From: Patescibacteria group bacterium
GTDB taxonomy: Bacteria > Patescibacteriota > WWE3 > UBA101185 > UBA10185
DNA: 42,386 bases
Assembly: GCA_018825365.1 (NCBI GenBank)
Contig: JAHJEV010000003.1
Coordinates: 66,284 to 108,669, forward strand
Direction of reading: 5' to 3'
A model generated the notes under the pieces. The model was not told the DNA's origin, ran no database searches, and saw nothing but the letters and a program-made list of their open reading frames with translations. Positions 1,291 through 37,984 of the stretch are shown here, one piece after another (within the stretch, counting starts at the first letter, position 1; the number at the start of each line of letters is the position of its first letter). Both the position numbers and the translations under genes were made by a program.

Positions 1291-1331
1291 GGGTTTATTC
1301 TAGCATTTCTGCTTAAGGTTAATTTGAGGTT

Positions 1332-1389
1332 AAAGAGTATCTACTGTTTAAGTTTAGAGAAAAGGAAGGACCGGAGGGACGTTTTATTA
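1332..1389 (+). repeat. 58-bp direct repeat, right copy
   Basis: This is the second copy of the repeat at 310-367. Here the frame continues a little further (FITRTLSR, then a stop at 1408), which supports the idea that both copies derive from a coding sequence that has since been broken. The spacer 1291-1526 holds nothing else that I recognise. Confidence 0.8.
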
Positions 1390-1526
1390 CAAGGACTTTA
1401 TCAAGATAGAAGTATTTTAGACATTCTATGAAAAGAGCTATTTTGATCTGCTTATTTTAGTTGGCATTTAGCCACTCACATGTATAACTTTGATGGGTGT
1501 TCAGATTCGAATCTATACTGAAAATA

Positions 1527-2465: not shown

Positions 2466-2613
2466 GGAGCAATTCTAACACTTTTAGAGGTACTCTGATC
2501 ACCTCTATTCATAATAGAATATAGGTAGTTGTAGTAGAAGCACTGTGATGTAAAATAACTGTACTCGAGAACTAAAATTGATAGTTTTGATCGTTGTATT
2601 ATTAATAGGTTCT

Positions 2614-3858
2614 ATGAAAGAATATTATTTAGACAAAATTTTTAAAAAAAGCAATAAGTACTTAACACAACTTTTTGATAAGCCAACGTTAGATGAGTTC
2701 GAAAGAAAAATCCATTATATCCACAAAGAAGAGGATACAAAAAAGGTAATAACGAAATTTATAAACGAATATACAAGCTTTGTAAAAAAAGAATTCCAGC
2801 GTCTTTATAAGTTATCTGATAAGAAGTTGAACAGTTTTTTGGAGGACCAGGATAATAAGGTAAAAGCTGTCTGGGGAGATTGTTATAAGGTATTGCGCTC
2901 AATGAAACCAGAATCTATACACTTAATGGTCACTTCCCCACCTTATTATAATGCAAGAGAATACACACAGTGGAAGGACCTAAAGGAATACCTTGCTGAA
3001 ATGCGACTAATAATACGCGAAGCTTACAGAGTTCTGGATAATCACAGAGTATTCGTGTTTAATGTGGGTGATATTTTTGATAACGATAATTTAGTTACAA
3101 AATCCGTTTGGGGTAAGAGAAGGCTTCCGTTAGCAGCGTATTTCATAAAAGTTTTTGAAGAGGAAGGATTCACATTTGTAGATGATTTCATTTGGGACAA
3201 GGGAGAAGTACAGAGTGAGCGTCACAAGAATGGTGACAAACCGTTCCCGTTTTACCAATATCCCACAAATTGTTATGAGCACATATTGATATTTCATAAA
3301 CACCGCTTAGACAAAACGAGGTACCCATGCCCCGTATGTGGAACGTTACAAGTGAGTGGTAACACACAGTCAGAACCTGGGATTCAGAGTTGGGAGTGCA
3401 AAAATAACGAATGTTTCACAAGAAGTAAATGTAACAGAGGAAAGAGGTTTTCACTAAAAACGTTGACTACTCAGTCCATGCAGCTAGATCAGCATATAAT
3501 ACCTGAGGAATTCGTAAAAAAGTGGAGAAGAGATATTATACGTTTTTCCCCAGTGATAAAAATAAATAGCAAGGGGGAAAATGCCCTTGGTCACACGGCA
3601 CCGTTTCCTGAAGATATACCAGATTTTGCGATCCGTATGTATTCTTATCCTGGTGAGAGCGTCCTGGATCCTTTTGCCGGTAGTTTCACCAGTGCTATCT
3701 GTGCACAGAAGTTAAGGAGGGTTGGCATTGGTATTGAAATAAATAAGAAACTGTTCAGAGATTCTATTCTAAGAAACATTAATAAAAAACTATCGATGCC
3801 CATTTTTCAAAAGGACTCTAGCATCATATCGGAATTCAATGGCCAAGGGTTTATTTAG
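2614..3858 (+). CDS. DNA methyltransferase, beta class (N4-cytosine or N6-adenine), of a restriction-modification system
   Basis: The product (about 414 residues from the ATG at 2614; a TTG at 2578 would add 12 hydrophobic residues and is less likely) carries catalytic motif IV TSPPYYNAREY near residue 107 and the AdoMet-binding motif DPFAGS near residue 354 followed by GIGIEI. Motif IV before motif I defines the beta class of amino-methyltransferases. TSPPY is common in N4-cytosine enzymes but also occurs in N6-adenine ones, so the methylated base is open. Between them, around residues 245-285, is a cysteine cluster (PCPVCG ... WECKNNEC ... KC) that looks like a zinc ribbon, an unusual insertion. 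The N-terminal 90 residues are charged and helical. It converges on the HNH endonuclease gene with a 3-bp gap, so the two probably protect and cut the same site. Confidence 0.85.
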   Translation: MKEYYLDKIFKKSNKYLTQLFDKPTLDEFERKIHYIHKEEDTKKVITKFINEYTSFVKKEFQRLYKLSDKKLNSFLEDQDNKVKAVWGDCYKVLRSMKPESIHLMVTSPPYYNAREYTQWKDLKEYLAEMRLIIREAYRVLDNHRVFVFNVGDIFDNDNLVTKSVWGKRRLPLAAYFIKVFEEEGFTFVDDFIWDKGEVQSERHKNGDKPFPFYQYPTNCYEHILIFHKHRLDKTRYPCPVCGTLQVSGNTQSEPGIQSWECKNNECFTRSKCNRGKRFSLKTLTTQSMQLDQHIIPEEFVKKWRRDIIRFSPVIKINSKGENALGHTAPFPEDIPDFAIRMYSYPGESVLDPFAGSFTSAICAQKLRRVGIGIEINKKLFRDSILRNINKKLSMPIFQKDSSIISEFNGQGFI

Positions 3859-3861
3859 ACA

Positions 3862-4962
3862 TTATTGATTGGTTATAATATCTCTTAATAATAATATAGT
3901 GTCTTTTATATCGTACGCACCTTGTATTGTATTGCAGTGTTTGTGTCCCCACCCCAAGTTGTAGGTATGGTGGTTAAGTTCTCCTGGCCTTAATCCCCTA
4001 ATGTGCATTAAAACGATCTCTGCCTGAGTGTTGTCCTCTTCTTCTCTACCTTCGTCTTGTGCAGAAACCTCAAAGAATTTATCAGGGGTCAACCCCTTGA
4101 GGCATAGGGGGCATATAGGCTGGCCAGATTCCTTGTCCCATGCTCGTATTTCACTTAAACTTTCAAAATTAAGTAGTGCATTTTCCTGACAATATTTTTC
4201 CACATGACCGAAGACTTTGTCGATATACTCTAAGACTTTTCCCGTATTTATGGCTCTTTGAATCCCTATGGCTAGATCTTCTTTAGAAGTAGAGTTAAAC
4301 ACGTTTATCAAGTAATCCTTCATTCCAGAAACCTTGAATATCATGTAAGACAATTGGTACTTTATTTTCTTTATTTCGCTTTCACTGGCGTAGTCATAAT
4401 CAAAATTTCCCAAGCCCGTCTGCTCTGGTATAGTTCGTAATCCGTATTTATTTCTAAGTGATTCTAAATATTCGGAGTTATTCGCTGTTCCACATATATG
4501 GGAGATTCTCTTGGGGGTTGTGTTGGGAATGAATAGACAGTATTGACCGGCCCACTGTTCGTCGTTGGGGACAGTGCTGCTTTTGGTGTATAGCTCGACA
4601 ACTTCGTCCCAATCTTTTCTGGAAGTAGTCTTACAAAAATGTCCAAATTTATCCCAATCTGGTATGGTCTTAAAATAGACGAATGCGTTACGACCAAGTG
4701 TTAAAGTTTTAGGAAAATCCGTCGCTACCTGCCCATTTTCGGAGAAATACTCATTGGGCTTGATACGAACGGCGTAACCTCTCTTAAAGTTGTTCAAAAA
4801 CGTAGGAGCTGTGCCCATGATCCTTTTATATGTGGATAATTGCATTATTACTCGATAAGACCTGCTGTTTCTACGTTTGTAGATTCCGTTACCGCTGCGA
4901 GCCTCACCTGTTTTATCTATTTTCTTTTTTAAGATATATGGAAAAGCGTCAGTACAGTTCAT
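3862..4962 (-). CDS. HNH-type restriction endonuclease, probable partner of the adjacent methyltransferase
   Basis: The last 84 of 366 residues form a zinc-HNH module: Cys284 and Cys287 (CPLC), His320 (LMHIRGLRPGE), His331/His332 (NHH) and His340, His342, Cys343 (GHKHC), followed by a helix. Such a pattern makes a beta-beta-alpha-metal DNA-cutting site with a structural zinc. The first 200 residues show no recognised motif and presumably bind DNA. The GELNHHTYNLGWGHKHCN portion recalls BstXI-like endonucleases, but that is from memory and not certain. It converges tail to tail with the methyltransferase, a typical type II layout in which both genes have separate promoters. The start is the first ATG at 4962. 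Confidence 0.75.
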   Translation of the reverse strand: MNCTDAFPYILKKKIDKTGEARSGNGIYKRRNSRSYRVIMQLSTYKRIMGTAPTFLNNFKRGYAVRIKPNEYFSENGQVATDFPKTLTLGRNAFVYFKTIPDWDKFGHFCKTTSRKDWDEVVELYTKSSTVPNDEQWAGQYCLFIPNTTPKRISHICGTANNSEYLESLRNKYGLRTIPEQTGLGNFDYDYASESEIKKIKYQLSYMIFKVSGMKDYLINVFNSTSKEDLAIGIQRAINTGKVLEYIDKVFGHVEKYCQENALLNFESLSEIRAWDKESGQPICPLCLKGLTPDKFFEVSAQDEGREEEDNTQAEIVLMHIRGLRPGELNHHTYNLGWGHKHCNTIQGAYDIKDTILLLRDIITNQ

Positions 4963-5023: not shown

Positions 5024-5105
5024 TAGTGGGCGAGAGAGGACTCGAACCTCCAACCTTTCGGATACGGTCCTAAGCCGTACGCGTATGCAATTTCACAACT
5101 TGCTC
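5024..5105 (-). pseudogene. Decayed tRNA-Leu copy, probable left attachment site
   Basis: Positions 5026-5088 are identical over 63 bases to 16221-16283, which is the 3' part of the intact tRNA-Leu(TAG), covering acceptor 3' strand, T arm, variable arm, anticodon arm and most of the D arm. The remaining 5' part (5089-5105) is still alignable but has one deletion and several changes, so the acceptor stem can no longer form, and the encoded CCA reads CTA. Weak similarity continues into the 5' flank. A sharp boundary between identical and diverged sequence is expected of a site-specific crossover at a tRNA 3' end rather than of simple gene decay. Confidence 0.85.
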
Positions 5106-5173: not shown

Positions 5174-5203
5174 TGGTGGGCTATGTGTTAGGACGTGCGA
5201 ACT
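5174..5203 (-). repeat. tRNA-3'-end-like repeat, copy A
   Basis: This copy reads, on the plus strand, TGGTGGGCTATGTG then TTAGGACGTGCGAACT. It shares the leading TGGTGGGC and the terminal GTGCGAAC with six other copies in the window (8443, 10332, 11817, 15296, 35565, 36587). Read on the minus strand it resembles the last part of a tRNA: GTTCGC, a spacer, then GCCCACCA. It is the leftmost copy, 69 bp to the right of the decayed tRNA-Leu. Confidence 0.75.
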
Positions 5204-5375: not shown

Positions 5376-6677
5376 ATGAATAACAAAGAAACTAAAAAAT
5401 CAATAGACTCTTGCCTGGAGGAAACATATCGTATACTCGACGCTCCCTCGGAAAAACTCATCTCTTTAAACTCCATGATCATAGAATTAATTGATAGAGG
5501 TTACTTAGATGATACACCTCGAAACAAATCTAAATACTGGACAACAATAACTTTTAGGGATGTATTTATAACAACAACGGTTAGCTCCAAACCCAGTATC
5601 GGTCTTAAAAAATGGGTGCCTTTTACATACAAAAGAAAATTAATCAACCGGCGTTATAGGTCTGTTTTCACAGAATTAGACAACGCAGTTAATCACCAAG
5701 AACAATTGGACCAAAATTTATTCAGGCATGTTCTAAGTTATGAAGAAATTAGTAAGCACTTTTTTTATTTAGCACCTGTATTTATTAGCCGATTTAAATC
5801 AAAAACAGAGATAATTCCTACTACAATATACCTGTATGGTGGCTTTGACTTTATTGGGTGGATACTACCTGAGAAAAACATTCTTTTTGACGATCATGAT
5901 AAATTAAGGGAATTTATTCAAGAAAATCAGCTTGAACCAGGTGATTTTATTGTATACTCTCCAAACACTCAAGACGCCACGGGTATAGATATTTATACCA
6001 CTTGGCAACGCGACATGGATAAATATTACCGTGAAGGAAAAAGAGATAAAATTGATTACATCTTAAGTCACGAAACAAAAATCTCTGTTCGTGACCTAGT
6101 GTACCTTTACCTGATTGAGCATAATTTTATTGCAGAGGATTCTGAAATCATTGCTTTTGTTCAAAAACATCGCCCACTAATTGGTAAAGCAACTATTATG
6201 GGTGCTATCAGCCAGTTCCGTCATCGTATAAAAACCACAAAAGTAGAATCTGCTGATTCTGCAAACGAACAATCTACTACACACGAATCGACAATCGACC
6301 CGAGATATTTACTAGCTATAATCCAGAAAAAAGATTTAGTCTACAAATACCTACAATCTAATGGTCCAGCTACTGCAGACCAAATTGCTGGTGCCATAGC
6401 AGAAATCATCGGAGTAACAAAACAAAAGCTTTTGTCTCTTACATTTATCGATCCTCAAGATTCCCGAATAATCCGACTTGAAACTGGTGAGTTTGCATTG
6501 GCTCCCCAATTAGCAGATAAAGAAAATAATCTATTACTTTCCCCGCCTCCGGATCCCATTACTGCTCCCCCCTTTGTTCAATCACGCGCTCTGAAGTATA
6601 CAAAAACTTTTTTAATTGCCATAATAACAGTGGTTTCTATTATTATCTTATTAATTATACGGTCTAAAAATATATGA
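5376..6677 (+). CDS. Tail-anchored protein of unknown function, partner of the HerA-like ATPase
   Basis: I do not recognise the family of this 433-residue protein. It is soluble and mixed alpha/beta for most of its length, with a segment reading YLYGGFDFIGWILPEKN near residue 155 and LEPGDFIVYSPN near residue 195. Residues about 310-365 (YLQSNGPATADQIAGAIAE) look like a winged-helix fold. A proline-rich linker (LLSPPPDPITAPP) leads to a single membrane helix at about 408-428 (FLIAIITVVSIIILLII) with a basic end, so the body faces the cytoplasm. The stop overlaps the start of the ATPase gene by 4 bp, implying co-translation. It could be the sensor, effector or membrane tether of a two-gene system with the ATPase; nothing in the sequence decides which. 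Confidence 0.65.
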   Translation: MNNKETKKSIDSCLEETYRILDAPSEKLISLNSMIIELIDRGYLDDTPRNKSKYWTTITFRDVFITTTVSSKPSIGLKKWVPFTYKRKLINRRYRSVFTELDNAVNHQEQLDQNLFRHVLSYEEISKHFFYLAPVFISRFKSKTEIIPTTIYLYGGFDFIGWILPEKNILFDDHDKLREFIQENQLEPGDFIVYSPNTQDATGIDIYTTWQRDMDKYYREGKRDKIDYILSHETKISVRDLVYLYLIEHNFIAEDSEIIAFVQKHRPLIGKATIMGAISQFRHRIKTTKVESADSANEQSTTHESTIDPRYLLAIIQKKDLVYKYLQSNGPATADQIAGAIAEIIGVTKQKLLSLTFIDPQDSRIIRLETGEFALAPQLADKENNLLLSPPPDPITAPPFVQSRALKYTKTFLIAIITVVSIIILLIIRSKNI

Positions 6678-8410
6678 TATACACGTGTAAATGGAACACT
6701 GATAAAAACTCGTTACCGTTGCAGGATGACTTTAAACTCCAATTTAAAGCACAAAACCAGGATGATATTCCGCTCATTCTTATCGACGACAATGATAATA
6801 AACAAAGTGTTATATACAGTTACCCCAAAAACGCAATACACCTAAGCTCACTAGTTGACTGGATCAATGATTTTCAACCCAAAAAGAACGAAGTTATTGA
6901 GTTAGTACAAGTAACCGGTACAAGTTTTAAAATTCGCATCGGTAGCCGTGAATCAAACGATGCCGAAGGTATATATCTTGGTAAGTTGAAAGATAGTTAC
7001 GCTCAATATACATCCCACCGGAATTTTATTCTTCCAACAGAAGATTTAGTCACGCACACATTTATTTGCGGTGCGACTGGTTCAGGAAAAACGGTTTTGG
7101 GTAAGGCAATTGTCGAGGAACTTGCTTTAAAAGAAATACCAGCCATTATTGTGGATCTCAAAGGTGATTTAAGCTCCCTTGGCTTAATGGCACCCCAATA
7201 CACACCAGAAACAATTGGTTCGTGGATTAACACAGAGCCCTCCAAGAAAGAAGCTCTGTGCCAACAAAAAGTAAATGAAATCAATACAGGACTTGATGAG
7301 TTTGGTTTGACTTCTGAAAAAGTTAAAACTTACATCGATTCTTTAAGTGTTGCGGTTTTCACACCTAAAGCCGGAAAGGGTATTCACCTTTCGATTTCCT
7401 CACCTTTGGCAGCACCAAAAGATATTGCTTCCTTAATGCTCAGCGATCGTTCCGAAGTACTGGAAATGATCGGTTCGTATACAGATTCCTTTATAAGAAG
7501 CCTTTTTGCTGAAAGAAAAATTGGGCGTCTTGATAAGTACAAAACTTTCCTACATGAAATAGTCCAATACTGTTGGGAACACAGTATTTCTCTGAACGGT
7601 AAAGAAGGTTTAGTTACCGTTCAGCAAATGATTAATGAACCACCCTTCCGTGAAATCGGTGGTATGAACCTAAATAAATTTATTGATGACAAAATGAGGG
7701 TTGAACTTGCCAATCGCATAGCCATGTGTCTCACAGGAGTTGAACAATTGTGGTTTGAAGGTATTCCAATAAATATCCCTATGTTGCTTTCTCGACCAAC
7801 TGAACACGGGGATAAAACACCAGTAAGCATAGTTAACGTCTCCGATTTGCCATTTGACGAACAGATGTACGTCGTTTCACATTTGGCTTATTCCATCTAT
7901 AACTGGGCTAGGCCGCAAGGAGATTCAGGTGAAAAACCACGCATACTATTTTTTATTGATGAAATAGGAGGAGGAGGAGGTAAACAAGCGTTTTATCCAA
8001 GTCACCCGTATAACCCACCCTCGAAACCACCTTTAAATGTACTCCTAAAAAAAGGTCGAACCTTTGGAATTAGTTGTTTATTTGCTACACAAAACCCAGG
8101 CGATATAGACTATAAGGGTCTAAGTAACTGTGGAACCTGGTTTGTTGGTCGACTACAAACAGAACGTGATCGGAGAAAAATAATGGAGGGAATATCTACT
8201 GCAGAAATTCAAATCCAAAATATAAAGAATAAAATTGAAGATCTGTCCTTCAAAGAATTTCTAGTTAAAACTAAAGACGGTAAGGTGAATTTTGTTAAGG
8301 AACGATGGTTAGTAACCTACCACAAGACTCTTTCCGAAAATGATTTGTCCACTATTAATGGCCCGGAAATAAAAAAACACTTTCAAGAATGTGCAAAGAT
8401 AACCAGTTAA
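6674..8410 (+). CDS. HerA/FtsK-superfamily ATPase (DUF87/DUF853-like)
   Basis: Residues 133-140 are a Walker A motif (GATGSGKT) and 424-430 a Walker B motif (ILFFIDE). Between them IPAIIVDLKGDLSS at about 155-168 matches the strand after the P-loop in HerA-like proteins of the DUF853 group. Near residues 455-500, LLKKGRTFGISCLFATQNP and NCGTWFVGRLQTERDR carry the sensor and arginine-finger region of hexameric HerA motors. The N-terminal 120 residues could be the HAS-like barrel. These proteins form rings that move DNA or drive an associated nuclease. No HerA-partner nuclease (NurA, DUF4297 or Sir2) is present; the only partner is the tail-anchored protein encoded 4 bp overlapping upstream. 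A glycine run (IGGGGGKQ) follows Walker B, which is unusual. Confidence 0.85.
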   Translation: MIYTCKWNTDKNSLPLQDDFKLQFKAQNQDDIPLILIDDNDNKQSVIYSYPKNAIHLSSLVDWINDFQPKKNEVIELVQVTGTSFKIRIGSRESNDAEGIYLGKLKDSYAQYTSHRNFILPTEDLVTHTFICGATGSGKTVLGKAIVEELALKEIPAIIVDLKGDLSSLGLMAPQYTPETIGSWINTEPSKKEALCQQKVNEINTGLDEFGLTSEKVKTYIDSLSVAVFTPKAGKGIHLSISSPLAAPKDIASLMLSDRSEVLEMIGSYTDSFIRSLFAERKIGRLDKYKTFLHEIVQYCWEHSISLNGKEGLVTVQQMINEPPFREIGGMNLNKFIDDKMRVELANRIAMCLTGVEQLWFEGIPINIPMLLSRPTEHGDKTPVSIVNVSDLPFDEQMYVVSHLAYSIYNWARPQGDSGEKPRILFFIDEIGGGGGKQAFYPSHPYNPPSKPPLNVLLKKGRTFGISCLFATQNPGDIDYKGLSNCGTWFVGRLQTERDRRKIMEGISTAEIQIQNIKNKIEDLSFKEFLVKTKDGKVNFVKERWLVTYHKTLSENDLSTINGPEIKKHFQECAKITS

Positions 8411-9011: not shown

Positions 9012-10259
9012 TTATTCAGCGTCTAGAATCAATCCAGTTTTATATTTATATCTCCACAATACCCTTTTATACTCTAAATAGACGTCCTTGAAATTGGCTG
9101 TTGTCATTCTACTATCTTCCGGAAAATCGGTTATTCTAAGAAACTGTTTTAACTGTCTGGGTTTTATTATATCGCGTGCGTTTACCCCGTTTAGATTAGT
9201 AAGCTCTCTATTCCAATTTTCCACTAAATTATCAAGATCCCAAAGCTTCTGCTTCGAAGAAGTTTCTATTGCTTCTGGCATTACTTTTTCTTCTAGGTCT
9301 TTAACCCCCTGTATATACCTGGCCTCGTCTCTTTGTTTCAAAGCTTCTCGATTAGGGGGGTTTGCTGCATTTTGCTCTTTTATTTTCTCGAACTGCTCTC
9401 TTTTCGTTCTATAGGGCTCAGCCTTTTTTTCATCGATCTGCTGAATTCTCTCTTTTTGTTCTATTATCTCAAGCCTTAAATCAAATACATCCTTTTGTTC
9501 TTTTTCAGCAGCTTTCCTCCCTGTCTTTAAATGTCGCTCAATTTCTCTGATATCTTTTCTTGATACTCCCGCCTTTGTCTCCAAACGTTTTTTAATTTCT
9601 TCTATTTCATCGAGTTTAGCAACACTATCCTTGTGTTTAATTTCATCCACCTTAAGGTCTAGCTCCATAACATCGGCTGAAAGCTGGAGTTTGGAGATTT
9701 TATTCTCAATGGGTTCTAATCTTCCGTCGTAATACTCAATAAGTTTGTCAGCAATTGCATTTCTTTTTTCTATAAAGGTTGTCTTTTTTTCGACCCTTGC
9801 ATTGTATCTTGCCTGTTTTTTTTCTTTATCAAACTCCAGACGAATTTTCTCTTTTTCAATAGCGTTTAACCGTTTTTGAAGAGATGGTGTAATAACGCCC
9901 CTACCTGATAACTCCTGCATAGAAGATGTAATTTCAACGGATTTTTCGTCCAATTCACTGATCCGTCCGCCTACCTTGTTTATTCCATCTTTTATTAGAT
10001 TTGCTTTCTCATCATGCTTATCTACCCAAAACTGGTTATATGTGATTTTTAATCTACCAAGAATCCTATCTCCAATCTGCATTTTCTCGACATGCTCAAA
10101 AACGTCAGTCGCAAAATCTTTTGCTTTGCCGGATAAACTCTCGAATACTTCCTTCGCAGGACGGTCAAAAAAGTTCTGTACATCCTCTGCTGCGTATATT
10201 GCTCTATCGACAATATCTAAGGGCATAATATTAACTGTTGAAATTATAACCATACACAC
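9012..10259 (-). CDS. Large coiled-coil protein, unknown function
   Basis: The 415-residue protein has a short N-terminal region (LDIVDRAIYAAEDVQNFFDRPAKEVFESL), then long charged helices from about residue 75 to 330, with several breaks, giving an SMC-arm-like look without any ATPase motif. The last 70 residues (WDLDNLVENWNRELTNL ... FKDVYLEYKRVLWRYKYK) look globular. Starts at GTG 10259, ATG 10253 and ATG 10226 are all possible; the last gives the start MPLDIVDRAI and seems the most natural. It is the first gene of a two-gene operon with the 96-residue protein, and fills its own interval between repeats B and C. Function unknown; a structural or defence-related scaffold is possible but unsupported. 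Confidence 0.6.
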   Translation of the reverse strand: MCMVIISTVNIMPLDIVDRAIYAAEDVQNFFDRPAKEVFESLSGKAKDFATDVFEHVEKMQIGDRILGRLKITYNQFWVDKHDEKANLIKDGINKVGGRISELDEKSVEITSSMQELSGRGVITPSLQKRLNAIEKEKIRLEFDKEKKQARYNARVEKKTTFIEKRNAIADKLIEYYDGRLEPIENKISKLQLSADVMELDLKVDEIKHKDSVAKLDEIEEIKKRLETKAGVSRKDIREIERHLKTGRKAAEKEQKDVFDLRLEIIEQKERIQQIDEKKAEPYRTKREQFEKIKEQNAANPPNREALKQRDEARYIQGVKDLEEKVMPEAIETSSKQKLWDLDNLVENWNRELTNLNGVNARDIIKPRQLKQFLRITDFPEDSRMTTANFKDVYLEYKRVLWRYKYKTGLILDAE

Positions 10260-10490: not shown

Positions 10491-11063
10491 ATGCAAAAAG
10501 GTGACTATTTAACTACCATACTAAGATCAACTAAAACTGTCCTAACTCTTAAGGACATTGCTCTTTTATGGCAGGATTCTGATACCAACGCCGCAAGAGT
10601 CAGACTTAACTATTACGTTAGAAGGGGGCATTTGTGTCGTGTCCGAAGAGGTTTGTATTCCAAAGATAAAAACTACAACAAACTAGAGTTAGCAACCCGC
10701 ATATTCACCCCGTCCTACATTAGTTTTGAGACGGTTCTTGCAAAAGAAGGATTGGTGTTTCAATACCAAACCCAAATTACGGTTGCGTCCTATTTAACAA
10801 GAGAAATTATTATCGATAACCAAACCTACTCCTATAGAAGTATTAAAGAACCTGTGCTTATAAATACCTTGGGGGTTGAGCTTTCTGACGAAATATCAAT
10901 TGCTACCAAAGAGCGTGCCTTTTTAGATACTTTGTATATAAATACCGATTATCATTTTGACAACCTTAGATCCCTAAATTGGGATAAAGTATTTTCGATA
11001 TTACCAATATATAAAAACAAGCGTATGACCGGAACAGTTAATAAATTATTTAAGCAATCATGA
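10491..11063 (+). CDS. abiEi: AbiEi-family antitoxin / transcriptional regulator
   Basis: The 190-residue protein has the AbiEi plan: an N-terminal winged helix (ALLWQDSDTNAARVRLNYYVRRGHLCRVRRGLYSKD at about 27-60; the R-G-LY end of the wing is typical) followed by the antitoxin domain that begins ATRIFTPSYISFETVL and includes ISIATKERAFLDTLY near residue 145. AbiEi neutralises the nucleotidyltransferase AbiEii in a type IV system and represses its own promoter. An inverted repeat at 10450-10470 could be its operator. It overlaps the toxin gene by 4 bp. The pair fills a whole interval between repeats C and D, so it looks like a self-contained module. Confidence 0.85.
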   Translation: MQKGDYLTTILRSTKTVLTLKDIALLWQDSDTNAARVRLNYYVRRGHLCRVRRGLYSKDKNYNKLELATRIFTPSYISFETVLAKEGLVFQYQTQITVASYLTREIIIDNQTYSYRSIKEPVLINTLGVELSDEISIATKERAFLDTLYINTDYHFDNLRSLNWDKVFSILPIYKNKRMTGTVNKLFKQS

Positions 11064-11755
11064 CCTTAGACATATCTCTACATAAGACGATCCTGTTTCA
11101 GATTTTGAAGGACATTTATTCTGATACCACGATCTCACCTTTTTTAGGGTTTAAAGGTGGTACTGCGGCATTGATGTTTTACAAACTTGACCGCTTTTCT
11201 GTGGATCTTGATTTTGATCTGTTGGATGAAAGTAAAGAAGATGAGGTTTTTGCTAAAGTTTTAAAAATTGCTGCTAAGTACGGTACGATAAAAGAATCAT
11301 ATAAGAAACGCTATAACTTGTTTTGTTTAATATCCTATGAGGATAAGGCTCGCAATATTAAGGTGGAGATAAACCGCAGACAGTTTGGATCAAAGTACGA
11401 AATGAAAACCTATTTAGGTATATCGATGCTGACAATGGTTTCTGAGGATATGTTTGCACACAAATTAATGGCTATGTATGAGAGAATGGGAAAGACGAGC
11501 CGTGATATTTACGATGTTTGGTTTTTTCTGTCTAACCGTTTTCCAATTAATAAAGAGATTGTGGAAAAACGCTCCAATATGCCATTTAAACAACTGATTC
11601 AAACGTGTATTTTACAACTAGAGAAAATTAATAATAACCGTATACTGGAAGGGCTTGGGGAACTGTTAACACCGAATCAAAAAGACTGGGCTAAAGCCAA
11701 ACTAAAAGAGGAAACAATAGCCTTACTAAAACTTCGTATAGAAGCAGAAAAATAA
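11060..11755 (+). CDS. abiEii: AbiEii-family nucleotidyltransferase toxin
   Basis: Near the N-terminus of this 231-residue protein, FKGGTAALMFYKLDRFSVDLDFDL (residues 31-54) shows the nucleotidyltransferase signature: Gly33-Gly34, an arginine, and the metal-binding Asp49/Asp51 pair. Later, EDMFAHKLMAMYERMGKTSRDIYDVWFF at about 131-158 holds the conserved Lys and the R-D-x-D-V helix of AbiEii/MenT toxins. These enzymes add nucleotides to cellular RNA, tRNA acceptor ends in the MenT cases, and stop growth in infected cells. All key residues are intact, so it should be active. That some relatives act on the tRNA 3' end is striking next to repeats that imitate such ends, but a link is only speculation. 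Confidence 0.88.
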   Translation: MTLDISLHKTILFQILKDIYSDTTISPFLGFKGGTAALMFYKLDRFSVDLDFDLLDESKEDEVFAKVLKIAAKYGTIKESYKKRYNLFCLISYEDKARNIKVEINRRQFGSKYEMKTYLGISMLTMVSEDMFAHKLMAMYERMGKTSRDIYDVWFFLSNRFPINKEIVEKRSNMPFKQLIQTCILQLEKINNNRILEGLGELLTPNQKDWAKAKLKEETIALLKLRIEAEK

Positions 11756-11796: not shown

Positions 11797-11846
11797 TTGT
11801 TATAACAATAAAAGCGTGGTGGGCCAAGTGTCAGGATGTGCGAACC
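11797..11846 (-). repeat. tRNA-3'-end-like repeat, copy D, with palindromic trailer
   Basis: The repeat itself (11817-11846) reads TGGTGGGCCAAGTGTC then AGGATGTGCGAACC. Just left of it is a perfect 12-bp palindrome, TTGTTATAACAA at 11797-11808, then TAAAAGCG. The same palindrome and linker lie beside the 3' end of tRNA-Leu(TAA) at 37877-37898, and a close variant beside tRNA-Leu(TAG) at 16196-16218. So this repeat shares both the tRNA end and the tRNA trailer. Confidence 0.85.
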
Positions 11847-11957: not shown

Positions 11958-13826
11958 ATGAAAAAGCTTAAGAAAATAATACTGCGCATATTTTCTTTAC
12001 TTTTGCTGTTAGCTTTCAGCGCTATTTTAGTTCTTTATTCAATCTCTTATTTAATCCAATGGAATGATGACCGTGTTTCAAATAAAGGCGCAGAGGTTGT
12101 TAATGTTGAGGTAATAAGAAAAGATAATGTCTTGATCGGTCAAATAACAAACAAAGATGACGTCTCTTCAAAAAATCTTGAAGTTGGTTTAGACAACGAA
12201 GCACCTATTAATGTTAAGGAGGACGGTACATTCAGAATCGAGGATATAAATAAGGGAAATAAACACCTTTTCTATATAAATGGATCGCTCAGCAAAAAAA
12301 TCGGCTGGGCCAATGTTTCAGCTAAAAATAACAAAACCACTGCATTTATAGTAAAGCGTCCGTTGGTGGATTTTACATTTGGAGCAGATACTTATAATGA
12401 CAAAAGTTTGTATTCAGCAATAAATCACTGGTCTTTAGATCGAAGTGAGCTGTTTTACATAAATTCCACTATTGTTGCAAATATGCTAAGCACGTTTTCT
12501 GCGAGAGCCGCCTACAAAATCGATAAGGCGTTTTTTGGCCGTTCTACTCCATTTGTGGAATTAACGGGGTTTAATCAAAAGTACTTTACTCACCTTGATG
12601 ATCATGTGGAAGATAATCCAGAGGAGGAGTACACACTCAACGATATATATGGGTATACCTACGACAAAGCTGGGGTTCTTTGGATGATTACACCTATTGA
12701 TACTGTTGAATTTGCGAATCAGTTTAGAAATCTTTACGGTTCCGGGGCTATGAGATGTGAGGGATTTGCATTGTGGGATGTTGCTATGCTGAGAATTCTT
12801 GGATACGGCGTTGATGAAGTTATTGTAGGTTCATTTAGAGGGTCGGTGGGTCATGTAGCCGTTATTGTTAATACATCTTTAGGAGCAAATTATTTACTCT
12901 CAAATCAGTATTTGTTTGACAAAGGTGGTGAGGCTGCCCCTGGTACTTCTAGGTTATATGGAGATCTTAAGCAAGCTGAAAATTTTGTGGTGGAAGACAC
13001 CGGTATAGATACTTTTGCTAATGATTTTTATAACGTTTTCACGCCCGAAGCTATTGTTAACAATATGCCTGTTGAAACCTTAAAAGACTATTATGATGTT
13101 TTCTCCGAAATGATAGGTCGCCAAGTTCCATTAGTAGAAAAAGAGGAAGATTACAACAAAAAGATCAAAGACGAACCTACAATATCAATTGAGGATTACT
13201 TAAAGCAATATACACAAAGTACCAGCAACCCGTACCCTGAAATAGACACGTCGATTTACTTAAATGGAAATTGGGTTACTTACCATAACACTCTTCAAAA
13301 AGAGATTTGGGAACTAGCTTCTTTATACCCCAAGAATTCCCCGTATGTATTAGCTAAATACAATAACCGATCGCTTTTTGTGTCGAGGCCGGAACTGTAC
13401 GCACAAGTTTCTTTGAAAGGAAACAAAGTTATTGATTTGGCAAAGACTGTTAGGTCCCCCAATGCGATACTTGCTTGGATTAGCAAAAACGTAAATATGC
13501 CGGTTTATACGGAAAACACTCAAATAATGCTTGCTGATGAGCCAATTGTTTTTTCTGCAGGAAGACCTCAGGATAAGGCTATGTTGGCTTTTACCTTGTT
13601 AAAATTGAACAACTACGAAGCAGAAATAGTAATCGCAGAGGATACAAGTTACGTATTATTTAAAGAGGGTGGGAAGGTAAAAGTTTGGGACATGGCTACA
13701 TTAAGCGAAACCGGGATCATAGCTGATAGAGTGCATATTGTGTTTAATGAAAGTAAAACCTACTACCCCAACGCAAACCGTTTTGACGAAATGCCTATCA
13801 ATTTTGTAGAATTAACCAAGAAATGA
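11958..13826 (+). CDS. Membrane-anchored transglutaminase-like protein
   Basis: The 622-residue protein starts with a basic stretch and one membrane helix (about 10-34), so the body is outside the cell. Residues about 45-130 look like a carboxypeptidase-regulatory-type beta domain (VLIGQITNKDD ... VKEDGTFRIEDI). The region 255-325 fits a transglutaminase-like thiol fold: Cys267 in RCEGFALWD, His299 in VGHVAVIV, and an acidic residue candidate at Asp321 after LSNQYLF. Such proteins act as peptidases or protein cross-linking enzymes. A C-terminal region near 495-545 again resembles a second fold with AWISKNVNMPVYT. The stop overlaps the next gene by 4 bp, so it is co-translated with a surface protein that could be its substrate. 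Confidence 0.65.
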   Translation: MKKLKKIILRIFSLLLLLAFSAILVLYSISYLIQWNDDRVSNKGAEVVNVEVIRKDNVLIGQITNKDDVSSKNLEVGLDNEAPINVKEDGTFRIEDINKGNKHLFYINGSLSKKIGWANVSAKNNKTTAFIVKRPLVDFTFGADTYNDKSLYSAINHWSLDRSELFYINSTIVANMLSTFSARAAYKIDKAFFGRSTPFVELTGFNQKYFTHLDDHVEDNPEEEYTLNDIYGYTYDKAGVLWMITPIDTVEFANQFRNLYGSGAMRCEGFALWDVAMLRILGYGVDEVIVGSFRGSVGHVAVIVNTSLGANYLLSNQYLFDKGGEAAPGTSRLYGDLKQAENFVVEDTGIDTFANDFYNVFTPEAIVNNMPVETLKDYYDVFSEMIGRQVPLVEKEEDYNKKIKDEPTISIEDYLKQYTQSTSNPYPEIDTSIYLNGNWVTYHNTLQKEIWELASLYPKNSPYVLAKYNNRSLFVSRPELYAQVSLKGNKVIDLAKTVRSPNAILAWISKNVNMPVYTENTQIMLADEPIVFSAGRPQDKAMLAFTLLKLNNYEAEIVIAEDTSYVLFKEGGKVKVWDMATLSETGIIADRVHIVFNESKTYYPNANRFDEMPINFVELTKK

Positions 13827-15289
13827 AATATACCAGGGGTGTTATCTATGTGCTTCTGTTTTCGCTTCCTATCCTTTTGATCGGATGCTTCCCTTCTGTA
13901 TTTGCCATGAAATCTAAAACGGACACCACGCCTGAAACCACAATTAAAAATCAAATAGTCTTGATTGATGGAGTACCTTTTTTCTGTAAAGATGCGAAGG
14001 ATGCTCAAGAAAAAGCTGACGCACTCTTTAAGCTTTATACGGAAACAGAGTGGGATGACCCGGCTGCCGCAGTTGCGGCAAGGCAAGGTGCCTCCAGTAT
14101 GATTCAAAGTGGCTACGTTTCCCCGGAACATAGGAGTGCTAACACGCCGGTTGCCTCGACGGTTTTTAATGCTGATCCGATAACTAGCAATACTGGTAAC
14201 TTTGGACCGGCAATCACAAGCATCCTACCGGGTAAGTCGATTAATTTGGGTGATACGGACGTGGCTAAGGGAATCGGTAATTCGGCGATTGGCATAGCTA
14301 CAACCAAACTAATTGTTGATGCGGCTAATAAACAAGCAGTTGCGTCAGGTGCCCTTCCCCAAGTGAGTCAGGCTGCACTAAGCGACGTCGCCAAACTTAC
14401 GGGAAAAATAAACACTGTAGCAACTGCGGTAGATATTTCAACCGCGGGGTTAGCCTATATACAGGCAAACGAGGCCTTTATTAAAAGTGGTCAGCCGGCG
14501 GCAGACCCGAAAACGGGCACACCAAATCTCCTATATGTAGATGCATCTAATAAACTAATGGATTTGGCAGCTGCAGTAGCCCCAGTGTATTACACACCAG
14601 TATTTAATATTATGAAAGATGCCGGCCAAGGTGTCGCCACTTTACAAATCGGTCAGTCGCCGACAACTGGAATTGGAAAAGCCGAACATAAAGTATTAAA
14701 GCTTTTTTCGAACTATGCTATAACAGATGCTGAAAAAGCAGCCGTAGGACTCAGCTCAAATGAGAAAGTGACACCACCATGCTATGGCCCCAGCGCTCCT
14801 GGGTGTATTAAGCGCTTGGCTATTGCAACTAAATGTCCCCTAAATTTTATAGTGACAGCGCCAGATGGAAAAAAAGCCGGTGTCGATCCCACAACCAAAA
14901 AAGTGGTGGAAGAAATACCGGGCTCTTTTGTTCTTGATGCAGATAACTATAATGTTGATAGCCAGATAGTTTACCTGCCGGCACTGCAATCAGGTGACTA
15001 TCAAATCACGGCAACGGGGTTTGGAAAAGGAGATTACAATCTATACTACAAAACGTTTGACGCCGACGGAAACGTGCTGACTAGCCAACAATCTAAAGGA
15101 AAGATCAGTAATGGCGAAGTATTGGGAGCGAAATTTAACCCAAATGCGGACAGTTTAGCACGAGATAGCGAAAAAATTGTTTTTGTAAAAGATGTGATTT
15201 ATAAATATATTCTTCCATCAGCTGGTTTTGTACTGATTGTGCTTGTCGTTTCATTTTTAGCTTTTCGGAAAAAGAGAAAAAGATTGTAA
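13823..15289 (+). CDS. Cell-surface protein with signal peptide and C-terminal membrane anchor
   Basis: The 488-residue protein begins with a signal peptide ending in LLIGC, a lipobox with Cys22; cleavage after SVFA by signal peptidase I is the alternative. The middle (about 75-320) is rich in alanine, serine, threonine and glycine and without motifs. Around 335-440 a beta-sandwich-like domain is visible (FIVTAPDGKKAG ... YLPALQSGDYQITATGFGKGDYNLYY). A C-terminal membrane helix (about 461-482) ends in RKKRKRL, as in sortase-independent surface proteins. It is co-translated with the transglutaminase-like protein, so processing or cross-linking of this protein by that enzyme is a fair guess. 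The family is not recognised. Confidence 0.6.
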   Translation: MKYTRGVIYVLLFSLPILLIGCFPSVFAMKSKTDTTPETTIKNQIVLIDGVPFFCKDAKDAQEKADALFKLYTETEWDDPAAAVAARQGASSMIQSGYVSPEHRSANTPVASTVFNADPITSNTGNFGPAITSILPGKSINLGDTDVAKGIGNSAIGIATTKLIVDAANKQAVASGALPQVSQAALSDVAKLTGKINTVATAVDISTAGLAYIQANEAFIKSGQPAADPKTGTPNLLYVDASNKLMDLAAAVAPVYYTPVFNIMKDAGQGVATLQIGQSPTTGIGKAEHKVLKLFSNYAITDAEKAAVGLSSNEKVTPPCYGPSAPGCIKRLAIATKCPLNFIVTAPDGKKAGVDPTTKKVVEEIPGSFVLDADNYNVDSQIVYLPALQSGDYQITATGFGKGDYNLYYKTFDADGNVLTSQQSKGKISNGEVLGAKFNPNADSLARDSEKIVFVKDVIYKYILPSAGFVLIVLVVSFLAFRKKRKRL

Positions 15290-15295
15290 TTTTAA

Positions 15296-15323
15296 TAGGA
15301 TAGCTCGTCGCGATGTGCGAACT
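15296..15323 (-). repeat. tRNA-3'-end-like repeat, copy E (degenerate)
   Basis: The conserved end CGATGTGCGAACT is intact, but the left part (TAGGATAGCTCGTCG) has lost the TGGTGGGC block. It occupies the expected place between the surface-protein gene and the next module, and is directly followed by a TTGACA promoter box. Confidence 0.6.
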
Positions 15324-15326
15324 ACC

Positions 15327-15356
15327 TTGACAAAAATAAATGTTAGTATGTTATCA
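15327..15356 (+). promoter_or_regulatory. Promoter of the DUF4352-like gene
   Basis: TTGACA at 15327-15332 is followed after 18 bp by TTATCA at 15351-15356. The -35 box starts four bases after the end of repeat E, so the module begins with its own promoter right at the repeat. Confidence 0.5.
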
Positions 15357-15389
15357 TTTTGAAGAGTGGGAATGACATTTTTTAACTAG

Positions 15390-16076
15390 ATGTTTAAAAA
15401 TAAAGAAAATACAGGTAACAAAACAGTAAGGGAAATGAGTTTAAAAACTGTTATTGGGTATATCTTCAACGCACTCATCCTGATTTTTTTCATCTTTTCA
15501 GGAGTTGTAACAGTTAAAGCGGGCCAGTTGGTTGTTGGTATACTCTATTATGTTTTAGCTGCCCTGGTCGTTGTGCCTCACCACCGCCTAAGAGTCACTA
15601 AATCTTTAAAATTTGTAATTCTCGTTATACTTTTCTTTATACTTACCATAATAAGTGGTGTTAATAACACACCTGATAAACAAAAGTATGACTATTTTAC
15701 CTTAGCGCAGGAATTTAATCTAAAATATGGAGGTAATACATACTCAATTGTGGTTAAAGATGTGCGACAGGAGACCAAAATTATCGTACAACAAAAAGAG
15801 GTAACCACATCCGGTTATTTTCTCATTGTTCGGGCGGATATTGTGAATCTTGGATCGGAATCCATAGATTTTAAGCTCGGAAAAAATCCCGAGTTAATAG
15901 ATAACCAGGATAGACGCTATACTTTATATGGCTCAAATATACCTGCGGGAAAATTGCAACCTAGTGTGGCTAAGGAGGTTTCCTATTTTTTTGAAATACC
16001 CAAGGATGCATCAGGCTTAAAATTTATCATTAAAGATGGATCTGTAGTTGCTAAATCTATAGATCTGAAAAGATAA
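15390..16076 (+). CDS. Membrane protein with a DUF4352-like extracellular domain
   Basis: The 228-residue protein has an N-terminal cytoplasmic tail, three closely spaced membrane helices (about 20-42, 46-63 and 73-91), then an outside domain of some 135 residues. That domain (IVVKDVRQET ... GYFLIVRADIVNLGSESIDF ... LIDNQDRRYTLY ... VAKEVSYFFEIPKDASGLKFII) has the order of elements of DUF4352, an immunoglobulin-like fold common in surface lipoproteins. No enzymatic function is implied. It forms the last module before the intact tRNA-Leu(TAG). Confidence 0.65.
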   Translation: MFKNKENTGNKTVREMSLKTVIGYIFNALILIFFIFSGVVTVKAGQLVVGILYYVLAALVVVPHHRLRVTKSLKFVILVILFFILTIISGVNNTPDKQKYDYFTLAQEFNLKYGGNTYSIVVKDVRQETKIIVQQKEVTTSGYFLIVRADIVNLGSESIDFKLGKNPELIDNQDRRYTLYGSNIPAGKLQPSVAKEVSYFFEIPKDASGLKFIIKDGSVVAKSIDLKR

Positions 16077-16218: not shown

Positions 16219-16301
16219 TGGTGGGCGAGAGAGGACTCGAACCTCCAACCTTTCGGATACGGTCCTAAGCCGTACGCGTATGCCAATTCCGCCACTCGCC
16301 C
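16219..16301 (-). tRNA. tRNA-Leu (anticodon TAG)
   Basis: On the minus strand the gene starts GGGCGAGTGGCGGAATTGGC and ends CTCGCCCACCA; the 7-bp acceptor stem GGGCGAG/CTCGCCC is perfect and CCA is encoded. The anticodon loop is CTTAGGA, giving TAG. A long variable arm, typical of leucine tRNA, is present. It forms the right border of the repeat-punctuated region, and 63 bp of its 3' part is duplicated at 5026-5088. Confidence 0.95.
16221..16283 (-). repeat. 63-bp direct repeat (attachment-core-like), right copy
   Basis: This segment of the tRNA-Leu(TAG) gene is identical to 5026-5088. The two copies are in direct orientation, 11.2 kb apart, and enclose repeats A to E and their gene modules. 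An element integrating into the 3' end of a tRNA gene leaves exactly this signature. Confidence 0.85.
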
Positions 16302-31929: not shown

Positions 31930-31930
31930 A

Positions 31931-32051
31931 TGACGATGATACTACAGGAAATTAACACTATAAAGTGTTATGAGCGTTTCCACTAACATTAGGATTTACG
32001 CTTTCATCATTAAGTTTTTGTGAAGTAAGTCTTTTAGAATGTCCGTAAAAG
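31931..32051 (-). repeat. Decayed duplicate of the 3' end of the ATP-grasp gene and its spacer
   Basis: This spacer matches 32826-32935 over most of its length. The match includes TACAGGAAATT-NN-CACTATAAAG, GCGTTTCCACTA and the coding end FTDILK, after which the copy loses one base and goes out of frame, with an extra insertion near 31986-32003. So the end of the ATP-grasp gene plus its spacer exists twice, on both sides of the M14 gene. Confidence 0.8.
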
Positions 32052-35536: not shown

Positions 35537-35594
35537 AATACTAATGTGCTTCCAAATTAGTATTGGTGGACCGAGTGTCAGGATGTGCAAACTA
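35537..35594 (-). repeat. tRNA-3'-end-like repeat, copy F, with hairpin
   Basis: The repeat (35565-35594) reads TGGTGGACCGAGTGTC then AGGATGTGCAAACT on the plus strand. A perfect 10-bp stem precedes and touches it: CAATACTAAT at 35537-35546 and ATTAGTATTG at 35557-35566. The hairpin could terminate the ybaK transcript, or belong to the repeat in the same way as the palindromes beside copies D and G. Confidence 0.8.
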
Positions 35595-35636: not shown

Positions 35637-36551
35637 GTGGAAACTCTTGAAGAAAAATTAAAGCGCGTTAAATTAGTTTTTAATATTGACGAAGTTATAA
35701 GCAGACGTACAAACCTGGATGATATTAAAAATTATTATAGGGTTAATATAATCCCCTATTTTCTTTTTCATAATAAACGAGACTTCGTTCATAATGGTAT
35801 ATCTAGAGGCAAAAGATATTCGGATAAAGATGTATATGAACAGCCCAAAATAGTAGAAAAATATATAAGAGAGATGGGTGCAAAAAGGTGTTTAGAATTA
35901 GCGACTGGAAAAGGAGCCTCAAGTTTTTATTTAGCAGAAATATTTCCCAACGTAAAATTCTTTGCTATTAATCTTGCTGACGGACAGTTAGAGATTGCTA
36001 AAAAGAAAGCCCGTCGAGTAGATAACTTCTTCCCAGAAGAAGGAGACTACCACGATTTAGGCAATTACCATGATAACGACTTTGATATAGTATTTGTGTT
36101 TGAGGCTCTTTGCCACAGCAATGACAAGGGAAAAGTCGCAAAGCAGGTATACAGACTGTTAAAGCAAGGTGGTTTGTTTATAGTCATTGATGGTTACTTA
36201 AATAAACCGTTAGGTGAACTTAGCGAAACCGAATTGTTAGCAAAAAAGCTTTCGGAAAGGGGGATAGTAGTAGAAAAATTCGAATTATATGACGATGTTA
36301 AGAAAGACATCGTTACAAAAGGTTTTCAAGTAATATATGAAAAGAATGCTTCTCTCTTGGTCCTACCTTCCTTGTATAGATTTGAGAAACTATCTCATGA
36401 AGTGCTTTTTAGAATTCCTTTGTTTGGAAAAATGATAGTCAAATTACTACCAAGAGATTTTGTTAATAACGCTTTGTCAGGTTACTTAATGCCCACTTTA
36501 ATCCAAACTAAAGTAGCTTGCTATTGCATCACTGTTTTTGAAAAGGTTTAG
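35637..36551 (+). CDS. SAM-dependent class I methyltransferase
   Basis: The 304-residue protein (GTG start; -10-like TAAAAT lies about 8 bp upstream, so the message may be leaderless) has the Rossmann methyltransferase order: CLELATGKGASSFYLAE at about 84-100 for AdoMet binding, NVKFFAINLADGQLEIAKKKA with the second-strand acid replaced by Asn/Asp, DIVFVFEALCHSND near 150-163, and LLKQGGLFIVIDGYL. It resembles the ubiE/cyclopropane-synthase-like group acting on small molecules or lipids. The C-terminal part has an amphipathic region (LFRIPLFGKMIVKLLPRDF). It forms a single-gene module between repeats F and G. Confidence 0.75.
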   Translation: METLEEKLKRVKLVFNIDEVISRRTNLDDIKNYYRVNIIPYFLFHNKRDFVHNGISRGKRYSDKDVYEQPKIVEKYIREMGAKRCLELATGKGASSFYLAEIFPNVKFFAINLADGQLEIAKKKARRVDNFFPEEGDYHDLGNYHDNDFDIVFVFEALCHSNDKGKVAKQVYRLLKQGGLFIVIDGYLNKPLGELSETELLAKKLSERGIVVEKFELYDDVKKDIVTKGFQVIYEKNASLLVLPSLYRFEKLSHEVLFRIPLFGKMIVKLLPRDFVNNALSGYLMPTLIQTKVACYCITVFEKV

Positions 36552-36662: not shown

Positions 36663-37805
36663 TTACTCTGGAATATTTAAGGCATCTCTAGTTTTGGGGT
36701 TCTTGATTCCTTTTCTACCCGCATCCACTCCGTGGGCATTGATACATCTATCAATATAGAAAAATAGATTTTCTAAAGTGCCCTCGTAAAGTTGGACACC
36801 TTCCTCATGCATGAGTTTCTTTCCAATAACAAGTGCTCGTGCCCAGGCATTACGTTCATGGAGAGCCGTAACAGTCGCTTGAAACTCGTCGCTTTCTTTA
36901 CTAAGACGATCGGCCACGACCTTTAGCTCACTTTTTACGCATTTCGAGATACCGTCCTGCGCTGTGTCCTGCCTATTTGCCTCAGTATGAGCATAGATTT
37001 CTCTTAGAATGTTTCGTGCCTGCTCATTCAACATATTTTCAAAATCAGCTAGCGAAACCCCCGTGGCCTCAACCCGACGGTTTAACGGATAATTAGCGTG
37101 CGCGGAAAGAGTTGTTTCAATAGAAATAAATTCATGTGTTTTCACTTCCAACAGATTATTTAGTCTTTCCTCAACTTGGGGATTTTTGTAATCTGGGTTT
37201 AAGCCGACAAAAGAGCCCAAACTATCTGAGTTTACATTAAGAAATAATTGTAATGCGCGGAACTGCTCTGAAATCAAACTCTCCTGTTGTCGTTCTTTGG
37301 CGTTTTCTACGTAATCCCATGCGTGTCCTATCTCATGTAATATAGCCAAAGAAGAATCTTTAGTCTCGCCAACTAACAAACCCGTTACCCCCTTTTCTTT
37401 AGCTACTGGCAAACCGATAATGTGCTCCATATCGAAGTAATAAGGACTCAATCCTTCACATTCGTTTATAGATTTAGGGTCCCCGTCCACACTAAGTACG
37501 CCAAGAAAAGTAACTCCACTCGGTAAATACTGGTTCAGGTTCACGTCTTTTATGTAGACCGAAAGCGCCTCTCCTACTCCGCCATGAATTTTTGCGCGGT
37601 CAACATAATGTCCAGCCTCTAGCGTAGCTTTACAATCATTCCAAAAATTTGTCATTAGCTGTTGGATTTTGGGAGCATCATATACCTCTCTACCAATGGA
37701 GTGGCGACTTTCGTTTTCTGCCAATATTTGTAACTCTTCATGTGTCATTTCATATTTCGAGTCGGTACCCATCTGCGTCGAAGGGAAAGTTGTTTCAGAG
37801 GTCAT
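36663..37805 (-). CDS. HExxH-motif protein, putative metallopeptidase
   Basis: The 380-residue protein has HEIGH at 157-161 in the helix SSLAILHEIGHAWDY, the zinc-binding active-site pattern of gluzincin/metzincin peptidases. A third ligand is not obvious; candidates are glutamates in the helix about 35 residues later. Before it, FDMEHIIGLPVAKEKGVTGLLVG would be the strand and loop that precede such a helix. The C-terminal half is helical. No signal peptide is present, so it would act inside the cell. It is a single-gene module between repeat G and tRNA-Leu(TAA). Toxin, housekeeping peptidase or inactive relative are all possible. Confidence 0.6.
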   Translation of the reverse strand: MTSETTFPSTQMGTDSKYEMTHEELQILAENESRHSIGREVYDAPKIQQLMTNFWNDCKATLEAGHYVDRAKIHGGVGEALSVYIKDVNLNQYLPSGVTFLGVLSVDGDPKSINECEGLSPYYFDMEHIIGLPVAKEKGVTGLLVGETKDSSLAILHEIGHAWDYVENAKERQQESLISEQFRALQLFLNVNSDSLGSFVGLNPDYKNPQVEERLNNLLEVKTHEFISIETTLSAHANYPLNRRVEATGVSLADFENMLNEQARNILREIYAHTEANRQDTAQDGISKCVKSELKVVADRLSKESDEFQATVTALHERNAWARALVIGKKLMHEEGVQLYEGTLENLFFYIDRCINAHGVDAGRKGIKNPKTRDALNIPE

Positions 37806-37898: not shown

Positions 37899-37984
37899 TG
37901 GTGGGCGAGGAGGGAGTCGAACCCTCATCAGCCGAAGCTGACGACATTTTAAGTGTCGCGTGTATGCCATTCCACCACTCGCCC
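37899..37984 (-). tRNA. tRNA-Leu (anticodon TAA)
   Basis: On the minus strand it starts GGGCGAGTGGTGGAATGGCA and ends CTCGCCCACCA; the acceptor stem is perfect and CCA encoded. The anticodon loop CTTAAAA gives TAA, and the long variable arm TCAGC-TTCG-GCTGA is typical of leucine tRNA. A perfect 14-bp palindrome (37876-37889) lies 10 bp after its 3' end. It borders the second repeat array. Confidence 0.95.

What the first reader, a model, noticed from the sequence alone, without database searches (positions are those of the whole stretch)
11797..11846. Repeats share the palindromic trailer of the tRNA-Leu genes
The 12-bp palindrome TTGTTATAACAA followed by an A-rich linker and GCG stands before repeat D and before the tRNA-Leu(TAA) 3' end (37877-37898); close variants stand before repeat G (36567) and tRNA-Leu(TAG) (16196). 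Thus similarity between repeat and tRNA covers about 30 bp outside the tRNA-like part too. A palindrome beside a core is what recombinase arm sites or a paired terminator would look like. It supports descent of the repeats from tRNA-Leu flanks, or vice versa.
Basis: seen in the sequence. Interest (0 to 1): 0.65.

Follow-up and report, generated by a model that had tools for sequence, protein, structure and literature searches.

The report
tRNA-anchored gene-cassette arrays with palindromic ends

Summary
The exact 12-mer TTGTTATAACAA occurs only twice in the 732-kb genome, both times 8-10 bp from TGGTGGGC: at repeat D and at tRNA-Leu(TAA). Close variants stand at tRNA-Leu(TAG) and repeat G. Named relatives place the genome in WWE3 (Katanobacteria).

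The repeats are junctions of small cassettes (0.6-4.4 kb, 1-3 genes, no recombinase) inserted in tandem at the 3' ends of tRNA genes. Each full site reads [cassette right end with palindrome]-[core TGGTGGGC shared with the tRNA]-[cassette left end CATCTGTCAGGATGTGCGAAC].

The palindrome travels with the cassette. It is absent from the empty tRNA-Val site of a congener but present in the filled site here. It lies inside a homologous ~720-bp cassette found at two different positions in two genera. Strong palindromes occur at 9 of 24 cassette-end junctions and 0 of 49 uninserted flanks (p=1.3e-5, cut-off chosen afterwards). It is not Leu-specific (tRNA-Val(GAC) has a third array) and not a terminator.

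The recombinase is unidentified and must act in trans. tRNA-targeted additive islands are known. This is a new variant: a conserved non-tRNA half-site, found in 11 of 27 family genomes and in none of 18 others of the class.

The parts
5174..5202 (+). junction site A (outermost site of array 1, ancestral left flank): TGGTGGGCTATGTGTTAGGACGTGCGAAC
   Evidence: 42.5 bits
8443..8471 (+). junction site B
   Evidence: 45.5 bits
10332..10360 (+). junction site C
   Evidence: 50.3 bits
11797..11808 (.). 12-bp palindrome TTGTTATAACAA in the right end of the cassette left of site D (AbiE cassette); GGGTTT block 13 nt further left
11817..11845 (+). junction site D: core TGGTGGGC plus left-end half-site
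   Evidence: 48.9 bits
16197..16208 (.). palindrome variant TTGTTATAAAAA beside tRNA-Leu(TAG)
   Evidence: rank 2 of 42 own tRNAs
16219..16301 (-). tRNA-Leu(TAG), anchor of array 1; its 3' end supplies the core TGGTGGGC (16219-16226)
35564..35592 (+). junction site E (outermost site of array 2)
   Evidence: 39.2 bits
   Evidence: (score 7, weak)
   Evidence: 48.0 bits
37877..37888 (.). 12-bp palindrome TTGTTATAACAA beside tRNA-Leu(TAA)
   Evidence: rank 1 of 42
37899..37984 (-). tRNA-Leu(TAA), anchor of array 2; core 37899-37906
5376..8410 (+). cassette A-B: two genes (unknown; HerA-like ATPase)
9012..10259 (-). cassette B-C: one gene of unknown function (415 aa)
10491..11755 (+). cassette C-D: AbiEi antitoxin and AbiEii toxin pair
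11958..16076 (+). cassette D-tRNA: three genes (622 and 488 aa unknown; 228 aa DUF4352-like)
35637..36551 (+). cassette E-F: one methyltransferase gene
36663..37805 (-). cassette F-tRNA: one gene of unknown function (380 aa)

Best explanation
The palindrome is the inner part of the right end of small integrative gene cassettes. The excised cassette would be a circle whose attachment site reads [GGGTTT - about 13 nt - TTGTTATAACAA - A-rich 8-10 nt]-[TGGTGGGC]-[CATCTGTCAGGATGTGCGAAC]. Recombination between its core and the identical 8 bp at the 3' end of a tRNA gene (Leu-TAG, Leu-TAA, Val-GAC) inserts the cassette. The tRNA keeps a full 3' end now followed by the cassette's palindrome; the old trailer is pushed outward, joined to core plus the conserved left half-site. 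Repeats of this at the same tRNA build an array whose inner sites can carry the palindrome and whose outermost site carries the ancestral flank. Shown: the site anatomy, the orientation, filled and empty sites, and the cassette moving as one unit with the palindrome inside. Inferred: circle intermediate, site-specific (probably tyrosine) recombinase acting in trans, and the palindrome as a protein-binding arm.
For: (1) 25 sites in 11 of 27 family genomes: 24 score 17.5 bits or more and one (12.4) equals the null maximum of 12.4. In 9 of these genomes the sites lie downstream of tRNA-Leu or tRNA-Val, all in the same orientation; in G002 and G022 the sites run towards a contig end where the anchor would be expected, so they cannot be placed. 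No match in the 18 other class genomes. (2) tRNA-Val: the empty site in congener G001 and the filled one here have the same 50-nt spacing from a conserved anchor to TGGTGGG; a 610-bp one-gene cassette lies between two TGGTGGG copies, and the palindrome is present only in the filled site. (3) tRNA-Leu(TAG): same-genus G025 (empty) and G023 (filled) are collinear up to TAGTGGG, then a 2.2-kb insert. (4) G025 and G026 share left flank and repeat at tRNA-Leu(TAA), then carry different cassettes up to the tRNA. (5) The same ~720-bp cassette lies at the tRNA in G023 and inside an array in G003: homology starts at the left half-site and stops at TGGTGGGC, palindrome included. (6) Palindrome score >=10 at 9/24 cassette-end junctions against 0/49 ancestral or uninserted flanks, p=1.3e-5. 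(7) Cassette genes are mostly unrelated to each other, 1-3 each, with no recombinase family detected in those scanned.
Against: No recombinase is linked to any site, and none was identified. About half of inner junctions (B, C and others) and 7 of 11 array tRNAs lack a strong palindrome, so it is not obligatory or has decayed. No reads were available to show excised circles. tRNA identity is only 8 bp, short for a classic tRNA integrase site. Some left ends diverge (G023 outermost junction; the G003 fourth site has lost its core). The score cut-off of 10 was chosen after looking at the scores; the rank tests without it are weaker (p=0.013 inner vs outermost, p=0.066 array vs non-array tRNAs).
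Confidence: 0.86

Rival explanations
1. The palindrome is a transcription terminator or 3'-processing signal of the tRNA genes, and resembles the repeat flank by common use.
For: It sits 8-10 nt after the tRNA 3' end, and a T-run follows the CCA end.
Against: RNA folding z = 0.06 and -0.84; the T-run lies before, not after, the hairpin, and no terminator-like site was found there. Absent from the other tRNA genes of the genome and from empty orthologous tRNA trailers.
Confidence: 0.04
2. The repeats are decayed tRNA-Leu copies (tRNA-derived dispersed repeats), and their flanks were copied with them.
For: Shared TGGTGGGC and CGAAC; a real decayed tRNA-Leu copy at 5026-5105.
Against: The 22-nt half-site is conserved across genera but not clearly alignable to the tRNA interior (shuffle p 0.28, 0.18, 0.02). 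Homologous cassettes end exactly at the core.
Confidence: 0.04
3. The units are transposons with an 8-bp target duplication TGGTGGGC, moved by a DDE-type or Tn7-like transposase.
For: TGGTGGGC is duplicated at both ends. A subset of right ends carries AAGTTCGANTCC, roughly inverted to the left-end TGCGAAC.
Against: The ends are not inverted copies of each other. No transposase family was found in the cassettes scanned. The same 8 bp of tRNA is always used.
Confidence: 0.06

Closest known systems
Additive flexible genomic islands with gene cassettes at tRNA genes (Alteromonas PMC4119200; Ca. Actinomarinales PMC7771536; Methylophilaceae fGI-2 PMC10872708)
   Same: Small cassettes accumulate at a conserved tRNA; a tRNA-derived direct repeat marks each insertion; cassettes are shared between genera.
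   Different: Published repeats are copies of the tRNA 3' end (for example 20 and 52 nt). Here tRNA identity is only 8 bp, and the rest is a conserved non-tRNA half-site plus a palindromic right end. Found here in WWE3.
tRNA-integrating genomic islands with tyrosine integrase (Islander, PMC4383910)
   Same: The tRNA 3' end is regenerated and a second copy of the core marks the far end; tandem insertion.
   Different: No integrase gene in or near the units; units of 0.6-4.4 kb; up to four units at one tRNA.
Integron cassette arrays and integrase-less attC clusters (CALIN; own knowledge)
   Same: One to a few genes per cassette, each with a recombination site; recombinase not in the cassette.
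   Different: No GTTRRRY/RYYYAAC boxes at the ends; insertion at tRNA genes rather than attI; no integron integrase recognised.
Tycheposons (as described in PMC10872708)
   Same: tRNA-bounded cargo elements in streamlined genomes.
   Different: 4-200 kb, with a tyrosine recombinase (xerD).

Membership tests
tRNA-anchored additive cassette islands | several cassettes inserted in tandem at one tRNA 3' end | tested here: met
   four sites before tRNA-Leu(TAG), two before tRNA-Leu(TAA), one before tRNA-Val, all co-oriented
tRNA-anchored additive cassette islands | direct repeat of the tRNA 3' end at the far end of each cassette | tested here: met
   8-bp TGGTGGGC or a one-base variant at each site; the longer repeat is not tRNA
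tRNA-anchored additive cassette islands | presence/absence variation with precise boundaries | tested here: met
tyrosine-integrase genomic island (Islander type) | integrase gene within the element | tested here: not met
   only two PF00589 genes in the genome, neither in the window; none near sites in relatives
integron | integron integrase (IntI) in the genome | tested here: inconclusive
   two tyrosine recombinases, one XerC-like by inspection and one lacking the catalytic Arg; no IntI-specific model was run
integron | attC boxes GTTRRRY / RYYYAAC | tested here: not met
   site ends read GTTCGCA / TGCGAAC, by inspection
DDE or Tn7-like transposon | terminal inverted repeats and transposase | tested here: not met
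   ends not inverted copies; no transposase family in the cassettes scanned
intrinsic terminator | stable G+C-rich hairpin followed by T-run | tested here: not met
site-specific recombination system in general | excised circle and recombination activity | not testable with these tools
   needs reads or an assay

The most novel reading that the evidence does not exclude
An integron-like gene-capture system of WWE3 bacteria in which tRNA 3' ends serve as the landing sites and a chromosomal recombinase shared by the whole family (for example the universal XerC-like protein) moves recombinase-free cassettes by a bipartite site (palindromic right end, conserved left half-site) unrelated to attC.
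Probability: 0.15. Interest if true: 0.8.

Novelty: new variant of a known kind. Interest (0 to 1): 0.52.

Why it matters
It shows how a 0.7-Mb bacterium of the candidate phyla radiation acquires and swaps accessory genes (toxin-antitoxin, methyltransferase, HerA-like and cell-wall genes) without carrying the recombinase in the cassettes. The site is short and conserved, so cassettes can be found and counted in any WWE3 genome, and the helper enzyme can be searched for directly.

Tried and rejected
Right end as an inverted copy of the left half-site: tested with a profile, not better than random for most sites.

Terminator: rejected.

Repeat as decayed tRNA: alignment not significant for tRNA-Leu.

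Linked recombinase: tyrosine and serine recombinases were searched in all 27 family genomes; none lies near a site. Serine recombinases are in 9 of the 10 genomes with a pattern-search site and 9 of the 17 others, only suggestive (counts read off); the one in this genome has an internal stop.

An outer AAGTTCGANTCC block in the right ends: 11 of 11 letters in two of them, but no overall difference between classes (p=0.21).

IMG/VR: no match to the half-site. GTDB contig scan: five WWE3/Patescibacteria records plus one Bacteroidetes record that was not followed up and is about what chance allows.

Literature: no paper found on such arrays in WWE3.

Full report
Observation. At one mismatch the word is no commoner than its reversed control, so the position is what matters. 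Profile scoring of 42 of the genome's own tRNA trailers puts tRNA-Leu(TAA) first, tRNA-Leu(TAG) second and tRNA-Val(GAC) third.

Anatomy. Six sites in the window share TGGTGGGC (or a close variant) followed by a 21-22 nt sequence, consensus CCATCTGTCAGGATGTGCGAAC: A 5174, B 8443, C 10332, D 11817, E 35564, F 36587, all on the + strand. A to D lie downstream of tRNA-Leu(TAG) and E and F downstream of tRNA-Leu(TAA), both tRNAs on the - strand. A profile scan with a shuffled null (maximum 12.4 bits in 82 kb) added a seventh site at 17.5 bits, about 610 bp downstream of tRNA-Val(GAC), whose 3' end is also TGGTGGGC. The tRNA identity is the 8-bp core. The remainder does not align significantly to the tRNA-Leu interior.

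Relatives. The named records show that the family is candidate division WWE3. In 10 of 27 family genomes the half-site is found at three mismatches with zero control matches, and the profile adds an eleventh, G006. None of the 18 other genomes of the class has it. In nine of the eleven genomes sites lie 0.5-11 kb downstream of tRNA-Leu (or tRNA-Val) and all point the same way. In G002 and G022 the sites run towards a contig end where the anchoring tRNA would be expected, so they cannot be placed. In G003 two of the three sites are 10-11 kb away with probable core genes between, so their assignment to that tRNA is uncertain.

Mobility. At tRNA-Val the congener G001 is empty. From a conserved anchor to TGGTGGG there are 50 nt in both genomes, but here a 610-bp cassette with one P-loop kinase gene separates two TGGTGGG copies, and only the filled site has the palindrome. 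At tRNA-Leu(TAG), G025 and G023 of one genus are collinear up to the core, after which G023 has 2.2 kb more. At tRNA-Leu(TAA), G025 and G026 share flank and repeat, then carry different cassettes. A complete cassette of about 720 bp is found beside tRNA-Leu(TAG) in G023 and inside an array in G003. The alignment begins at the left half-site, ends at TGGTGGGC and contains the palindrome. A nucleotidyltransferase gene 75% identical in G013 and G026 lies in cassettes with different neighbours.

The palindrome. Counting self-complementary pairs plus TTG/CAA ends at 7-15 bp from the core, scores of 10 or more occur at 5 of 13 inner junctions and 4 of 11 tRNAs that carry an array, against 0 of 12 outermost sites and 0 of 37 uninserted tRNA trailers. 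Pooled, this is 9 of 24 against 0 of 49, p=1.3e-5. The cut-off was set after seeing the scores; rank tests without it give p=0.013 (inner against outermost) and 0.066 (array against non-array tRNAs). The one outermost site with a fair palindrome, G003_a, turned out to be the right end of the cassette. A GGGTTT block stands about 13 nt further left in several right ends. As RNA the palindrome folds no better than shuffles and is not followed by a T-run.

Cargo. Cassettes hold one to three genes: AbiEi/AbiEii, a HerA-like ATPase, a methyltransferase, peptidases, LysM and amidase proteins, radical SAM, nucleotidyltransferases, and many unknowns. No recombinase or transposase family was detected in those scanned.

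Enzyme. The genome has two tyrosine recombinase genes, both outside the window; the whole family carries at least two per genome. One looks XerC-like; the other lacks the first catalytic arginine in most genomes. A serine recombinase gene here has an internal stop. None is linked to the sites, so the enzyme acts in trans or came from a helper element. Its identity is open.

Known kinds. Cassettes accumulating at tRNA genes are described as additive flexible genomic islands in Alteromonas, Actinomarinales and Methylophilaceae (PMC4119200, PMC7771536, PMC10872708). The mode is the same. What differs is the site: 8 bp of tRNA plus a conserved non-tRNA half and a palindromic right end, used at three tRNAs sharing TGGTGGGC, in a candidate-phyla-radiation lineage. 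I found no earlier description in the library held.

Noticed in passing
window 5026-5105: Decayed tRNA-Leu(TAG) copy, 97% identical to the intact gene over 69 nt, at the outer end of array 1; probably a tRNA displaced by an older, different insertion.
   Followed up: partly
window 310-4962: PD-(D/E)XK protein, DUF4268 protein, N6/N4 DNA methylase and BstXI-type restriction enzyme side by side, with a 57-bp direct repeat at 310 and 1332 (95%).
   Followed up: partly
G000:C3:451739-452215 and orthologues (L008, L218-L237): A second tyrosine recombinase, found across the family, has lost catalytic Arg I in most members and has Asn in place of the conserved His; a conserved, probably inactive recombinase.
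   Followed up: partly
L161 (G023), 9773 and 7526 bp downstream of tRNA-Leu(TAA): Two copies of a variant site TGGTGGGCCATCGTTGACCAGGTTGCGAAC, a possible second half-site type.
   Followed up: no
L157 (G009), 148 and 314 bp downstream of tRNA-Leu(TAA): Two true 21-nt tRNA-Leu 3'-end fragments, so a different kind of element uses the same tRNA.
   Followed up: no
G003:C40:1703-1980, G023:C1:393753-393786, G025:C6:462-495: Fragments of the 5' half of tRNA-Leu(TAG) repeated just upstream of the intact gene.
   Followed up: no
G007 contigs C9, C11, C18, C19, C23-C25: Thirteen serine recombinase domain hits in one 0.7-Mb genome.
   Followed up: no
window 31917-32055 and 32813-32934: Diverged direct duplication, 75-88% identical in pieces (D4, D8, D17).
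   Followed up: no
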